Positions 18,933 through 29,060 of a DNA stretch of 32,357 nucleotides are shown one piece after another; positions within the stretch are counted from its first letter, which is position 1; each line of letters begins with the position of its first letter. Both the position numbers and the translations under genes were made by a program. Location of the stretch: NCBI GenBank assembly GCA_009903935.1, contig WYEG01000025.1, positions 1-32,357 on the forward strand, read 5' to 3'. This DNA is from Caldimicrobium sp. GTDB taxonomy: Bacteria; Desulfobacterota; Thermodesulfobacteria; Thermodesulfobacteriales; Thermodesulfobacteriaceae. Below the pieces are notes generated by a model that saw nothing but the letters and a program-made list of their open reading frames with translations, was not told where the DNA came from and did no database searches.

Positions 18933-19967
18933 ATGAAAAACTATGAAATAATCATTGTTGGAGCGGGTCCGGCTGGGCTTCAGGCAGGAATTCACACGGC
19001 AAGGAGAAAACACTCCGTCCTAATCCTTGGAAAACCTCAAGCAAGCGCCCTATGGAACGCTCACATTGAGAATTATTTTGGCGTTCCAGGAAAAGCCTCT
19101 GGAGCTGAGCTTTTAAAGGTAGGCTTAGCTCAGGCTCAGGGTTTCGGGGCAGAATTCTTGGAAGAGGATGTTGTTAAAATTGAAAGAGTAGAACCCGGTT
19201 TTTTGGTTGAGACTGAAACAGGGAAGACCTTCCAAGGCTTAGCCCTTATTTTAGCGCTGGGAGTAAAGAAAAAGAAGAAGATTTTTAAAGAGGAGGATAA
19301 GTTTGTTGGCAAGGGGGTTTCTTACTGCGTAGACTGTGATGCCTGGTTTTATAGAGGAAAGAGGGTTGCAGTGATAGGCGATGGTAGCGCAGCCCTTCAT
19401 GGAGCTCAAACTTTAACCAAGTTTGCCGAAAAGGTTTATCTCATCCCTTATTCTTTTCGTCATCCCGAGCGTAGCGAGGGATCCCCTACGGCGTTCGGAG
19501 CGACAACTAATGAGGAGACCCCTCGGCTTGCGCCTCGGGGTGACATGATGGATACTCTGGGTGACATTGAAGGGGGTCGTGCTGACAAAAAAACTGCTTT
19601 GGATGATATAACCGAAGAGGCAGAAAAGATTGAAGTTATAAGAAAGAAGCCTTTGGAGATAGTGGGGGAGGATGAGGTTTCTGGGCTCAAGTTTGAGGAT
19701 GGAGAGAGCATTTCCGTTGATGGCATCTTCATTGAGATTGGGGCAAAGGGACCGCTTGAACTCCTTGCCCCTTTAGGTATTGAGCTTGACCCTCAAACCT
19801 TTAGCTATGTTAAAGTTAATCAAAGAATGGAGACGAATGTGCCTGGTGTTTTCGCCTGCGGTGACCTCACTGGTCCCCCTCTTCAGGTAGCAAAGGCGGT
19901 TGGAGAAGGTTGCGTTGCCGGAATCTCAGCCTCGGATTATGTAAAGGCATTAAAAGGGAAAGGCTAA
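18933..19967 (+). CDS. Thioredoxin-reductase-like FAD oxidoreductase carrying an in-frame repeat insertion
   Basis: This is a 344-residue flavoprotein of the thioredoxin reductase class. It has the FAD motif GAGPAG at the N-terminus, a redox pair Cys132-Val-Asp-Cys135, a nucleotide-binding GDGSAA, and the C-terminal FAD motif GVFACGDL. Residues 176-216 (FRHPERSEGS onward to GGR) are encoded by a HPERSEGS-type repeat. They sit right after the strand VYLIP, where NADPH-dependent thioredoxin reductases have the HRRDxxR phosphate-binding motif. Without the insertion the protein would be about 303 residues, the normal family size. The frame is open throughout and the downstream FAD motif is intact, so it is probably functional; its electron donor is uncertain. 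GGGGGTAGG precedes the ATG. Confidence 0.88.
   Translation: MKNYEIIIVGAGPAGLQAGIHTARRKHSVLILGKPQASALWNAHIENYFGVPGKASGAELLKVGLAQAQGFGAEFLEEDVVKIERVEPGFLVETETGKTFQGLALILALGVKKKKKIFKEEDKFVGKGVSYCVDCDAWFYRGKRVAVIGDGSAALHGAQTLTKFAEKVYLIPYSFRHPERSEGSPTAFGATTNEETPRLAPRGDMMDTLGDIEGGRADKKTALDDITEEAEKIEVIRKKPLEIVGEDEVSGLKFEDGESISVDGIFIEIGAKGPLELLAPLGIELDPQTFSYVKVNQRMETNVPGVFACGDLTGPPLQVAKAVGEGCVAGISASDYVKALKGKG
19458..19580 (+). repeat. REP/BIME-like HPERSEGS element, copy 1 (inside a gene)
   Basis: Two inverted hairpin units lie here. Unit 1a at 19459-19486 (plus) has the head GTCA and stem ATCCC-GA-GC-GTA-GC-GA-GGGAT. Unit 1b at 19519-19544 (minus) has head GTCA and stem CCCC-GA-GGC-GCAA-GCC-GA-GGGG. 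A degenerate tail follows with another GTCACCC on the minus strand near 19564-19558. The proposed insert is 123 bp (41 codons), which keeps the reading frame. Twenty-nine bases, 19519-19547, are identical to 23620-23648. The exact ends are inferred. Confidence 0.85.
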
Positions 19968-22148: not shown

Positions 22149-23552
22149 ATGCCCAAGAAAAAGAAGCAAGAAGGCGTTGAGGTTGAGGCAGAGGTGAAAA
22201 CCCAAAAAAAGGGGCGAGGTAAAAGCCAGGTTGACGAGACTACTAAAGAGCCCACCCAAACAAAGGTTCTAAAGAAAAAAAGGGAAAAGCTTGAGCCTAC
22301 GGGTCCAAGGAAATACATCATGCTTATTGGGGACGGAATGGGAGATTTTATGATAAAGGAGCTTGGGTGGAAGACCCCGCTTGAGGTTGCTATAACCCCG
22401 GGGTTAGACTTTTTAGCAAGCTATGGAGAGGTTGGCTCCTGCCAGACTATTCCTCATGGGATGCATCCTGGCTCGGATGTTGCCATCATGGGACTTTTAG
22501 GCTATCCACCAGAAGAAAAATACACGGGGAGAGGACCAATTGAAGCCTACGCTCGTGGTATTGAGCTTAAGCCCGAAGATGTGGCCTATCGTTGTAATCT
22601 TGTTACCCTTCGTCTTGAGGGGGATGAGCTGATAATGGAAGACTATTCAGCTGGGCATATCGATACAGAATCAGCCATAGAGCTTATTGAAGCCATAAAT
22701 CGCGTGGCCGGAACTGATAAGGTCGAGATCGTGCCTGGAGTAAGCTATCGCCATATTTTAATCTGGAGGGGTGGGTCTGGAGGCTTGCAGACCTATCCTC
22801 CCCATGACCTTATCGGAAAGAATGTCTGGTTTGCCTTTCAAGCCTACGACGAGGAGCCTTACCTAAAAGAATTCATTCTAAAGGCTATAGCCGTGCTTGA
22901 AAAGCATCCCATAAACCAACAGAGAAAGCTTGAGAACAAGCCAGTTGCCAACGCCATTTGGCCATGGGGACAAGGGCGAGCTCCAGACCTTGAGCCTTTT
23001 GAAGAAAAATGGGGGCTAAAGGGGGCGGTAATTTCCGCGGTTGACCTTATCAAGGGATTGGGCAGGCTTGCCAAGATGACCGTTATAGATGTTCCTGGAG
23101 CAACGGGATACATTGACACAAACTACGAGGGCAAGGTTGATTATGCCATCTCAGCTTTAGAGACGCACGATTTTGTGCTTATCCATGTTGAAGCACCTGA
23201 TGAGGCAAGCCATGAAGGAAATCTTGAGCTTAAGATCAAAGCTATAGATGAGTTTGACAGACGGGTTGTGAGGTATCTTTTAGAGCGGATAGTTGAACTA
23301 ACAGATAACTATAGAATCCTTGCCTGCTGCGACCACCTTACTCCCATTTCCATCCGCACCCATTCCACAAAACCCGTTCCCTTTGTCATCTATGATTCTA
23401 AGCTTCACACCAAAAAGAAAGGGGATATTAAATTCTGTGAGAGAGTGGCTTATGAATCTCCCCTTTATTTTCCTTCTGGACCAGAGCTTTTTTCCTATTT
23501 CATTGAACGTCCTTTAAAATCAGAGGAAGTCGCAGAGCATGCTGGGCGTTAG
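22149..23552 (+). CDS. apgM: Archaeal-type cofactor-independent phosphoglycerate mutase with Lys-rich N-terminal extension
   Basis: This ApgM-family enzyme (467 residues) converts 3- and 2-phosphoglycerate in glycolysis and gluconeogenesis. It shows the metal-binding LIGDGMGD near residue 60, the nucleophilic serine in HPGSDVAIMGLLGY, and EAPDEASHEGNLELK near the end. The first ~54 residues are a Lys/Glu/Thr-rich low-complexity tail absent from typical members. A strong Shine-Dalgarno (AAGGAGGAGAG) directly before the ATG supports this start. The stop codon lies in the first bases of repeat copy 2. Confidence 0.93.
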   Translation: MPKKKKQEGVEVEAEVKTQKKGRGKSQVDETTKEPTQTKVLKKKREKLEPTGPRKYIMLIGDGMGDFMIKELGWKTPLEVAITPGLDFLASYGEVGSCQTIPHGMHPGSDVAIMGLLGYPPEEKYTGRGPIEAYARGIELKPEDVAYRCNLVTLRLEGDELIMEDYSAGHIDTESAIELIEAINRVAGTDKVEIVPGVSYRHILIWRGGSGGLQTYPPHDLIGKNVWFAFQAYDEEPYLKEFILKAIAVLEKHPINQQRKLENKPVANAIWPWGQGRAPDLEPFEEKWGLKGAVISAVDLIKGLGRLAKMTVIDVPGATGYIDTNYEGKVDYAISALETHDFVLIHVEAPDEASHEGNLELKIKAIDEFDRRVVRYLLERIVELTDNYRILACCDHLTPISIRTHSTKPVPFVIYDSKLHTKKKGDIKFCERVAYESPLYFPSGPELFSYFIERPLKSEEVAEHAGR

Positions 23553-23831
23553 CAAGTCCTTTCCCGCTCATCTTGTCGTTTCGAGCATAGCGAGAAATCC
23601 CCTCTTTGACAATCGGAGCCCCCTCGGCTTGCGCCTCGGGGTGACATGGGAAAAGGAGACCCCTCTCCTTGAGCGTTGGGGTGACATCCTCCACTCTGTC
23701 ATGCCGAGGGATAGCGAGGCATCTTTCACTTCGTTCGGGACGGCGTCCCCAGGGTGCCCTCTCGCTTGACAGCTCGGGGTAACAAAAAAGAGAAGCTCGG
23801 GGAGACAAAAGGAGGACTCGGGATAACAAAA
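23546..23831 (+). repeat. REP/BIME-like HPERSEGS element cluster, copy 2
   Basis: This mosaic fills the apgM-nadB gap. From left to right it has a shared 59-bp end (23546-23604) containing unit 2a (plus; stem GTTTC-GA-GC-ATA-GC-GA-GAAAT, 23578-23598); unit 2b (minus, 23620-23645, identical to 1b); degenerate unit 2c (minus, 23660-23685); unit 2d (plus, stem ATGCC-GA...GA-GGCAT, 23701-23722); and unit 2e (minus, about 23727-23747). Three short tails follow at 23771-23831, each reading CTCGGG(G) plus TAAC or AGAC plus AAAA. The left end includes the apgM stop codon. Confidence 0.88.
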
Positions 23832-23846
23832 GGGTGGAGCAAAAAT

Positions 23847-25451
23847 ATGAAAGTTGAAAAGACGGATTTTTTGATCGTTGGCTCAGGAATTGCCGGTCTT
23901 TCTTTAGCCTTAAAGCTTAAAGACTTTGGAGAGGTTGTAATTTTAACTAAAAAGAGGAAGTTTGAAACGGCAACCTCTCTTGCTCAAGGTGGCATAGCCT
24001 GCGTGATGGGAGAAGATGATAGTTTCGACCTGCATATACAGGATACGTTGATCGCAGGTGATGGTCTTTGTGATAGAAAGATCGTTGAGCTCGTGGTAAG
24101 GTCAGCCCCGGAGAGGATTGCTGAGCTCCTTAGCTTAGGGGTTAACTTTGATCGGGACCCAGATGACCCAAGGAAATTTCACCTTGGTTTAGAGGGAGGA
24201 CATTCCAGGCGAAGGATCCTTCATGTAGGTGATTATACTGGAAGGGCCATTGAAAATGTGCTCATCGAAAGGGTTGTCGCCTCATCAAACATAAGGCTTC
24301 TTGAGCATCACTTTGTGGCTGACCTTTTGCTTTCTGAAACAGGGGAAGGGAGAAGGCTTGTTAGCGGGGTTCTTGCCTTTGACTTACTTCATGGTGAACC
24401 AAAGATCTATCTTGCGGACTTTGTTGCCCTTTGCACTGGTGGTGCAGGGAAGGTCTACCTATATACCAGCAATCCCGATACAGCAACAGGAGATGGCATT
24501 GCCCTTGCGGCGAGGGCTAACTGCCGAATAGCCAACATGGAATTCTTTCAGTTTCATCCAACCTGTCTTTATCATCCAAAGGCTAAGAACTTTTTGATCT
24601 CTGAAGCCTTAAGAGGCGAGGGCGCAATCCTTCTTAATCCTGAAGGTAAGCCCTTCATGCACCGCTACGACCCAGTAAGAAAGGAGCTTGCTCCAAGAGA
24701 TATTGTCACAAGGGCGATAGACTTTGAGCTTAAAAAGACGGGTGGTGAATGCGTCTACCTTGACATAACCCATCTTCCTTCAGACTACATCAAGAAGCGT
24801 TTCCCTTATATTTATGAGACCTGTTTGAAGTATGGGATAGACATTACCACTCAACCCATTCCGGTTGTGCCAGCAGCTCACTACCTTTGCGGCGGGGTCT
24901 ACACCAACGAGTATGGACAGACGGACATCCTAAATCTTTTTGCCGTGGGTGAATGCGCCTACACTGGACTTCATGGGGCAAACCGCTTAGCCTCAAACTC
25001 CCTTCTTGAGGGCTTGGTCTTTGCTCATCAAGCAAGCTTAAAGATTAAAGAGCTTTATCCTCAACTTAAAGGAAGGGTCCCTCCCCCAAGAATCAACGAA
25101 CCAAAGATAGAAGACATAAAGGATGAAAAAATCTTCATTTCCCACAACTGGGACTTAATTAGAAAGATAATGTGGGATTTTGTGGGAATCGTGCGGAGCA
25201 TAAAGATGCTTGAGTTTGCCCAAAAGAGGCTAAACCTGTTGATAGAGGAGATATCAGCAAATTGGGGTGGGTTTTATCTTGACCTTGATGTCATGGAGCT
25301 AAAAAACATAGCCATTGTGGCTGAGCTCATAGTCCGTTCAGCCATCTCACGAAAGGAATCCCGAGGAACTCATTACCTTCTTGACTATCCGGAAAAAAGA
25401 GAAGATTTTTTAAAACCCACGATCTTATTGCTGAACGGCTTTTCTATTTAA
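23847..25451 (+). CDS. nadB: NadB, L-aspartate oxidase
   Basis: NadB oxidises L-aspartate to iminoaspartate, the first step of de novo NAD synthesis; in anaerobes fumarate serves as electron acceptor. The 534 residues contain the FAD motif GSGIAGLS, TSLAQGGIACVMGEDDS, EGGHSRRRILHVGD, the active-site region EFFQFHPT, VPAAHYLCGG, and the second FAD contact GANRLASNSLLEGLVF. Start 23847 is chosen because it gives the family N-terminus and has GGTGGAGC upstream; the open frame before it is translated repeat DNA. The 3' end overlaps nth on the other strand by 27 bp. nadA and nadC are not in the window. Confidence 0.95.
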   Translation: MKVEKTDFLIVGSGIAGLSLALKLKDFGEVVILTKKRKFETATSLAQGGIACVMGEDDSFDLHIQDTLIAGDGLCDRKIVELVVRSAPERIAELLSLGVNFDRDPDDPRKFHLGLEGGHSRRRILHVGDYTGRAIENVLIERVVASSNIRLLEHHFVADLLLSETGEGRRLVSGVLAFDLLHGEPKIYLADFVALCTGGAGKVYLYTSNPDTATGDGIALAARANCRIANMEFFQFHPTCLYHPKAKNFLISEALRGEGAILLNPEGKPFMHRYDPVRKELAPRDIVTRAIDFELKKTGGECVYLDITHLPSDYIKKRFPYIYETCLKYGIDITTQPIPVVPAAHYLCGGVYTNEYGQTDILNLFAVGECAYTGLHGANRLASNSLLEGLVFAHQASLKIKELYPQLKGRVPPPRINEPKIEDIKDEKIFISHNWDLIRKIMWDFVGIVRSIKMLEFAQKRLNLLIEEISANWGGFYLDLDVMELKNIAIVAELIVRSAISRKESRGTHYLLDYPEKREDFLKPTILLLNGFSI

Positions 25452-28401: not shown

Positions 28402-28429
28402 TTGACATTTGCAAAAAATTCCGTATTTT
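28402..28429 (+). promoter_or_regulatory. Promoter of the coiled-coil protein gene
   Basis: A perfect TTGACA (28402-28407) is followed after 16 bp by TATTTT (28424-28429). The -10 box ends 6 nt before the ATG at 28436 and no Shine-Dalgarno lies between, so a leaderless transcript is likely. Confidence 0.55.
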
Positions 28430-28435
28430 AAATAC

Positions 28436-28864
28436 ATGGAGCTTCAACCAGAGGAAACCAGAGAAGTAGTCTACCGTATAGACCCCTTTTCTATCATCTT
28501 TCGTGAACTCGACCTTATTCATTCTGAAATAAGAGAAATCAAATCTGAAATAGTCTTTCTTCATCAAAGGGTCGATGAGACGAATAAGCGGATCGATGAG
28601 ACGAATAAACGGATCGATGAAATGAATAAACGCATTGATGATCTGAATATGAGAGTTGATAAAAAGATTGATGAGACGAATAAACGGATCGATGAGTTGA
28701 ATATAGCAATCAACAAAAGAATAGATGAGACGAACCTTAGGATTGATGTCCTTGCAAGCGATATTAACAGGCGATTAGACAAGCTCTTTTTAGTTGTAAT
28801 CATAAACCTTATCGCCATAATAGGCTTTTTGTTTAAAATTGTCTTAGACGGATTGATAAAATAG
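28436..28864 (+). CDS. Membrane-anchored coiled-coil protein with heptad repeats
   Basis: This 142-residue protein of unknown function has a charged N-terminus, a long continuous coiled coil made of RIDETNK-type heptads (about residues 40-120), and a single C-terminal hydrophobic helix (LFLVVIINLIAIIGFLFKIV). It would be tail-anchored with the coil in the cytoplasm. ATG 28436 is preferred over an upstream TTG at 28409 because the latter lies inside the promoter. The coil is encoded by 21-bp direct repeats. It is divergent from ycaO and followed by repeat copy 3. Similar coiled-coil/one-helix proteins are often annotated as hypothetical or DUF1640-like; I do not assign a family. Confidence 0.8.
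   Translation: MELQPEETREVVYRIDPFSIIFRELDLIHSEIREIKSEIVFLHQRVDETNKRIDETNKRIDEMNKRIDDLNMRVDKKIDETNKRIDELNIAINKRIDETNLRIDVLASDINRRLDKLFLVVIINLIAIIGFLFKIVLDGLIK
28574..28744 (+). repeat. 21-bp coding tandem repeats
   Basis: Seven 21-bp units occur at 28574, 28595, 28616, 28637, 28670, 28691 and 28724, with 12-bp breaks before the fifth and the seventh. Each encodes one IDETNKR-like heptad. The units at 28595-28615 and 28670-28690 are identical, which points to recent duplication or gene conversion inside the gene. Confidence 0.9.
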
Positions 28865-28883: not shown

Positions 28884-29060
28884 GTCTTCCCGAGCCTCTT
28901 TTTTTTGGCATCACTGGAGACGCCGTCCCGAACGAAGTGAGGAAGGACGCCGTCCCGAGCGAAGCGAGGGATGTCTCGGCTTGCGCTCGGCAGGACAAGG
29001 TGAGGGGATTTCTCGCTACCTTCGAAACGACAAGATGAGTAGCAGAGGACTTGCTAACGC
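28884..29060 (-). repeat. REP/BIME-like HPERSEGS element cluster, copy 3 (inverted relative to copy 2)
   Basis: The segment 29002-29060 is the reverse complement of 23546-23604 with 52 of 59 bases identical. To its left lie two plus-strand units in tandem at 28925-28949 (GTCCC-GA-AC-GAA-GT-GA-GG) and 28952-28974 (GTCCC-GA-GC-GAA-GC-GA-GGGAT), and a minus-strand unit at 28975-28996. A stretch from about 28907 also resembles the right part of copy 2. A short perfect palindrome (GAGGGG-T-CCCCTC, 29100-29112) lies beyond. The element fills the convergent gap between the coiled-coil gene and uppP; no gene is seen there. Confidence 0.85.

What the first reader, a model, noticed from the sequence alone, without database searches (positions are those of the whole stretch)
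19458..19580. A mobile palindromic repeat is built in frame into a flavoenzyme
The sequence shows a HPERSEGS-type repeat of about 123 bp inside an otherwise complete thioredoxin-reductase-like gene, adding residues 176-216 without breaking the frame. It falls right after the VYLIP strand, at the site where NADPH-dependent family members carry the HRRDxxR phosphate-binding motif. This resembles the Rickettsia palindromic elements that create new protein segments, here in an unrelated lineage. The change may alter donor specificity or be tolerated as a surface loop.
Basis: partly seen in the sequence, partly recalled or inferred. Interest (0 to 1): 0.8.

Follow-up and report, generated by a model that had tools for sequence, protein, structure and literature searches.

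The report
Mobile palindromes translated inside conserved proteins
In a bacterium related to heat-loving Caldimicrobium, short mobile DNA hairpins have landed in at least ten conserved genes without breaking them, so their sequence is now read as extra protein loops, as was described before for Rickettsia.

Summary
Window 18933-19967 encodes a complete 344-aa thioredoxin-reductase-like flavoprotein. It carries about 45 extra residues (about 175-219; DNA about 19456-19590) made of repeat DNA. Twenty-nine relatives lack the insert and have nothing of similar length there. The repeat is a REP-type hairpin family: at least 176 units in this 1.56-Mb genome, covarying stems, and a TGTC/CGTC tag like the CGTC REPs that include Rickettsia RPE-4 and RPE-6. 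The case is not isolated: in-frame copies lie inside at least nine other conserved proteins, including TrpE (about 100 aa), IspE, HyuA, TldD, PriA, a pseudouridine synthase, a RecB-like helicase, a glycosyltransferase and DnaX. No comparably long ORF was clearly cut by a copy. The donor-specificity idea fails: the whole clade already lacks HRRDxxR, and the nearest solved structure is an NAD(P)H-independent reductase. The insert falls in the most variable loop and is predicted disordered (pLDDT about 30). Best reading: selfish hairpins are kept only where they stay in frame in tolerant loops. A new, unusually rich case of a known phenomenon in a new phylum; mobiliser unknown.

The parts
18933..19967 (+). 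thioredoxin-reductase-like flavoprotein gene (TRi/FFTR-like, no HRRDxxR), 344 aa
19456..19590 (+). repeat-derived insert, about 135 bp / 45 codons, absent from 29 orthologues
19458..19486 (+). complete hairpin unit 1: CGTC tag, ATCCC/GGGAT stem, tandem G.A, read as RHPERSEGSP
   Evidence: 44.5 bits
19486..19505 (-). degenerate inverted unit remnant (CTACGGCGTTCGGAGCGACA)
   Evidence: by eye (compare copies in L044, L045)
19514..19545 (-). complete hairpin unit 2 in opposite orientation: TGTC tag, ACCCC/GGGGT stem, read as ETPRLAPRGD
   Evidence: 43.3 bits
19555..19566 (-). half-unit remnant (CTCTGGGTGACA)
   Evidence: by eye
19575..19589 (-). half-unit remnant (GGTCGTGCTGACAAA) at the 3' end of the insert
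   Evidence: by eye
23546..23800 (.). intergenic array of the same family, upstream of a nadB-like gene whose ORF opens inside it
28914..29060 (.). intergenic array of the same family

Best explanation
The insert is one dispersed copy (two hairpin units facing each other plus half-unit remnants) of a REP-type palindromic family that has spread through this genome. Shown: it is absent from orthologues, has the same make-up as intergenic copies, lies in frame, and similar in-frame copies sit inside at least nine other conserved proteins. Inferred: copies land more or less at random; those that break genes are lost, and those that are stop-free, a multiple of three long and in a permissive loop survive and are translated as a disordered segment. 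In this reductase the landing place was the short variable loop where NADPH-using relatives keep HRRDxxR, a loop already without that role in this clade, so catalysis probably goes on as before. What moves the hairpins is unknown; no Y1/RAYT-type transposase, IS605 OrfB or reverse transcriptase was detected in the genome.
For: Orthologue alignment: 29 relatives lack the insert, gene otherwise collinear. Repeat census: 60 BLAST matches, 176 model matches, 111 sites in the fetched DNA. Stem covariation: 45 double-change cells vs 11.8 shuffled, 0/500. Other in-frame cases against orthologues: HyuA about 50 aa, TrpE about 100, IspE about 57, RsuA-type pseudouridine synthase about 20, PriA about 18, RecB-like helicase 12, TldD, glycosyltransferase, DnaX linker; SbcC by sequence only. 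No ORF with 150 or more aa ahead of an array is clearly truncated by it. The site is the most variable window of the family; residues 175-223 have pLDDT below 50 in an otherwise TrxR-like model.
Against: No expression or protein data. The structure model rests on six sequences. A second TrxR homologue exists in the genome (C67), so this gene might be under relaxed constraint. Single MAG, no second genome of the genus, so the insert is not seen independently. Out-of-frame disruptions were sought only through ORF shape, not by homology of both flanks.
Confidence: 0.87

Rival explanations
1. The insert changes the enzyme: it replaces or mimics the 2'-phosphate-binding loop and alters electron-donor choice.
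For: It lies at the HRRDxxR position of NADPH-dependent relatives.
Against: All clade members without the insert also lack HRRDxxR. Nearest solved structure 5nii is NAD(P)H-independent, 6gna is ferredoxin-dependent. The insert is predicted disordered.
Confidence: 0.03
2. The copies are not translated as such: the hairpin is bypassed by ribosomes or removed from the mRNA, like bypassing elements or introns.
For: Strong RNA hairpin in the mRNA (MFE -61.6 kcal/mol for 170 nt); some mobile hairpins elsewhere are known to be bypassed (from memory).
Against: All intragenic copies counted are stop-free in the gene's frame and keep phase, which bypass or removal would not require.
Confidence: 0.04
3. 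The gene is a decaying pseudogene, a redundant second reductase tolerating junk.
For: A second TrxR homologue exists in the genome.
Against: The frame is intact; CxxC, the FAD motif and the C-terminal GD motif are conserved; about 62% overall identity to the nearest relatives. Inserts occur likewise in genes such as PriA, IspE and DnaX.
Confidence: 0.05
4. Assembly or binning artefact.
For: Repeats break assemblies, and several contig ends carry copies.
Against: The insert is mid-contig, frame is kept, and the pattern recurs in at least nine other orthologue-checked genes.
Confidence: 0.01

Closest known systems
Rickettsia palindromic elements (RPE; Ogata et al. 2000, 2002, cited through PMC10969869 and PMC3733652)
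   Same: Palindromic dispersed repeats inserted in frame in many unrelated metabolic and housekeeping genes; the translated segments look tolerated.
   Different: Different phylum (Thermodesulfobacteriota, thermophile judged by its relatives). Here several reading frames are used and arrays contain tandem half-units; each RPE family is reported to code for a conserved peptide.
CGTC-tagged REPs (Di Nocera et al. 2013, PMC3733652), which include RPE-4 and RPE-6
   Same: CGTC/TGTC tag, short hairpin, inverted dimers, no dedicated transposase, intragenic copies, several in replication/repair and pseudouridine-synthase genes.
   Different: Stem of 5 + 2-3 bp split by an invariant tandem G.A instead of 8-9 bp; tail CTCC/CCCT rather than CCA; larger clusters; a lineage not found by name in the parts of that paper read here.
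Desulfovibrio vulgaris TRi and FFTR thioredoxin reductases (PMC5627308, PMC12796991)
   Same: TrxR fold, CxxC, GKG, no HRRDxxR; best sequence matches in PDB.
   Different: TRi's TQ/NGK motif is not seen at that place; electron donor not tested.

Membership tests
CGTC-tagged REP superfamily | CGTC (or TGTC/CCTC) unpaired tag at one end | tested here: met
   73 of 94 units TGTC or CGTC, 16 CGCC
CGTC-tagged REP superfamily | 8-9 bp stem with AT first, 4-5 nt loop | tested here: not met
   5 bp + tandem G.A + 2-3 bp; loop 3-4 nt; first pair G-U or A-U
CGTC-tagged REP superfamily | short 3' tail fitting CCA | tested here: not met
   tails mostly CTCC, CCCT, GCCT
CGTC-tagged REP superfamily | no dedicated Y1/RAYT transposase | tested here: met
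   PF01797 and PF01385 absent from own genome
REP-type dispersed palindrome (broad sense) | short, palindromic, many copies, mostly extragenic | tested here: met
   at least 176 units, covarying stem, most of 111 sites outside long ORFs
Rickettsia palindromic elements | in-frame copies inside conserved genes that orthologues lack | tested here: met
Rickettsia palindromic elements | sequence homology to an RPE family | not tested
   no RPE sequence was compared here
Rickettsia palindromic elements | a family reads as one conserved peptide | tested here: not met
   HPERSEGSP, TPRLAPRGD, EGPLASLGMT, LSPRAKRG, GPLAYARGDK: several frames
NAD(P)H-independent TrxR (TRi/FFTR) | HRRDxxR absent, CxxC and Trx-binding GKG present | tested here: met
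NAD(P)H-independent TrxR (TRi/FFTR) | does not use NAD(P)H | not testable with these tools
   needs enzyme assay

The most novel reading that the evidence does not exclude
The inserts are not merely tolerated: their gathering in replication and repair genes (PriA, DnaX, SbcC, RecB-like, RadA tail), as also reported for REPs in other phyla, reflects either insertion during DNA repair at transcribed or stalled loci, or a selected change of genome stability. The repeats would then be a recurrent source of new protein segments.
Probability: 0.1. Interest if true: 0.85.

Novelty: new variant of a known kind. Interest (0 to 1): 0.6.

Why it matters
Protein-coding palindromes were first described as a peculiarity of Rickettsia; scattered intragenic REPs were later listed in other bacteria. 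A small-genome, Caldimicrobium-related lineage with at least ten conserved proteins carrying translated hairpins of 12 to about 100 residues gives a second, independent and dense case. It makes testable whether such segments are neutral loops or raw material for new protein parts, and whether replication/repair genes are preferred. It also helps annotators: HPERSEGS-like segments in proteins are repeat DNA, though here really in frame.

Tried and rejected
Target-site duplication at this insert: none beyond 6 nt. Mobiliser search: Y1_Tnp, OrfB_IS605 and RVT_1 families absent; other transposase families not tested. Rfam: nothing. In-frame cases in relatives G033/G034, which carry 29 and 24 units: the few spanning ORFs look spurious. 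Spacing of tandem half-units modulo 3 inside versus outside genes: suggestive only (6 of 8 vs 31 of 98 multiples of three). N-terminal overlaps (nadB, a folK-like ORF, L088, L123) were not counted as insertions, since translation may start downstream. RadA, L096 and L055 C-terminal tails not counted as internal. 'HPERSEG' is in no held paper. No same-genus genome was among those returned.

Full report
What is there. The ORF at 18933-19967 is a complete thioredoxin-reductase-like flavoprotein. Its flanks match relatives at up to 62% identity overall (76% up to residue 173) with nothing missing, but about 58 residues separate the two matched blocks where relatives have about 12-16. The excess, about 45 residues, equals about 135 bp at about 19456-19590. 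The exact ends cannot be fixed to the base because the flanking loop is variable.

The DNA is repeat DNA. The same genome has 60 BLAST matches. From them a unit can be read: a TGTC/CGTC tag, a 5-bp stem, an invariant tandem G.A (CGAG...CGAG), a 2-3 bp inner stem, a small loop, a short tail. The stem changes on both sides between copies (ATCCC/GGGAT, ACCCC/GGGGT, GTGCC/GGCAT, ATTTC/GAAAT, ATTCC/GGAAT), so it is the hairpin that is kept. A covariance model finds 176 units. Copies are patchy in relatives: 7, 4, 1, 29, 24, 5, 9 and 64 units in eight of 40 genomes, none in the rest. In the window insert, unit 1 (19458-19486, +) and unit 2 (19514-19545, -) face each other, with remnants around them.

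Not an isolated case. DNA around most model hits was fetched; 111 sites were defined. Besides the reductase, copies lie inside long ORFs. Compared with relatives, the inserts are extra in HyuA (about 50 aa), TrpE (about 100 aa, between the N-terminal and chorismate-binding domains), IspE (about 57), an RsuA-type pseudouridine synthase (about 20), PriA (about 18), a RecB-like helicase (12), TldD, a glycosyltransferase, and the DnaX linker. SbcC (coiled coil) and a pyruvyl-transferase-like protein show the translated repeat but had no orthologue in the comparison. Families were confirmed. RadA has a repeat-derived C-terminal tail. The RecB-like and DnaX copies are the weakest matches to the unit. 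Several reading frames are used, so the common factor is staying in frame, not one peptide.

Filter model. Intergenic arrays have on average 2.43 of 6 frames open over 135 bp (background 1.24); with the one-in-three length condition, roughly 14% of random landings would stay in frame. Yet the long ORFs that run into arrays are in frame, and none with 150 or more aa ahead of the array is clearly truncated; the one long ORF that ends there (L096) has a tail of six residues at what looks like a natural end, and RadA's is similar. This is as expected if gene-breaking copies are lost. This estimate is mine and rests on ORF shape; split genes were not sought by homology.

The reductase site. The insertion point is the most variable 12-column stretch in the family alignment. 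In the AlphaFold model (six sequences, mean pLDDT 72) residues 175-223 are below 50 while the rest folds as TrxR. The site does correspond to HRRDxxR of NADPH-dependent enzymes, but none of the 29 clade members has that motif, and the best PDB matches are D. vulgaris TRi, shown to be NAD(P)H-independent (PMC5627308), and Clostridium FFTR. So the loop had lost that role before the insertion; the donor-switch idea is not supported.

Mechanism of spread. Unknown. No Y1 transposase, IS605 OrfB or reverse transcriptase was found. Two sites show long direct duplications: 29 bp around the unit in the glycosyltransferase gene, a sequence found nowhere else in the genome, and about 67 bp, by eye, around an intergenic array (L053; 37 bp of it exact). 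These are longer than usual transposase duplications and would fit capture during repair of a staggered break; inference only. The window insert has no such duplication.

Relation to known things. In-frame palindromes in genes are known from Rickettsia (PMC10969869) and, as GTAG/CGTC REPs, from other phyla (PMC3733652), where replication/repair and pseudouridine-synthase genes recur, as they do here. The unit meets the tag and no-transposase features of CGTC REPs but not their stem or tail, so I call it CGTC-REP-like rather than a member. What is new is the lineage (nearest named relative Caldimicrobium), the number of conserved proteins affected and the size of some inserts.

Noticed in passing
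L074:2431-2526 (G000 contig C24): A repeat unit inside a glycosyltransferase gene is flanked by a perfect 29-bp direct duplication found nowhere else in the genome: a young in-frame insertion with an unusually long target duplication.
   Followed up: partly
L053:4898-5345 (G000 contig C4): An intergenic array is flanked by a near-perfect direct repeat of about 67 bp.
   Followed up: partly
window 23754-23847: The nadB-like ORF starts inside a repeat array; the true start is probably the ATG at 23847 (MKVEKT), so a gene caller may add about 31 repeat-derived residues.
   Followed up: no
window 28409-28864 and L055:1703-2173: Two closely similar small proteins with RIDETNKRIDE coiled-coil repeats and a C-terminal membrane segment, each next to a repeat array.
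   Followed up: no
L044-L077, many arrays: Many intergenic arrays end in an AT-rich stretch like TTTTTGTGCAAGCCC and contain tandem half-units (TTTTTGTCACCCCGAGCCCC, 20-24 bp spacing).
   Followed up: partly
G000 contig C67:2889-3407: A second thioredoxin reductase homologue (about 38% identical).
   Followed up: no
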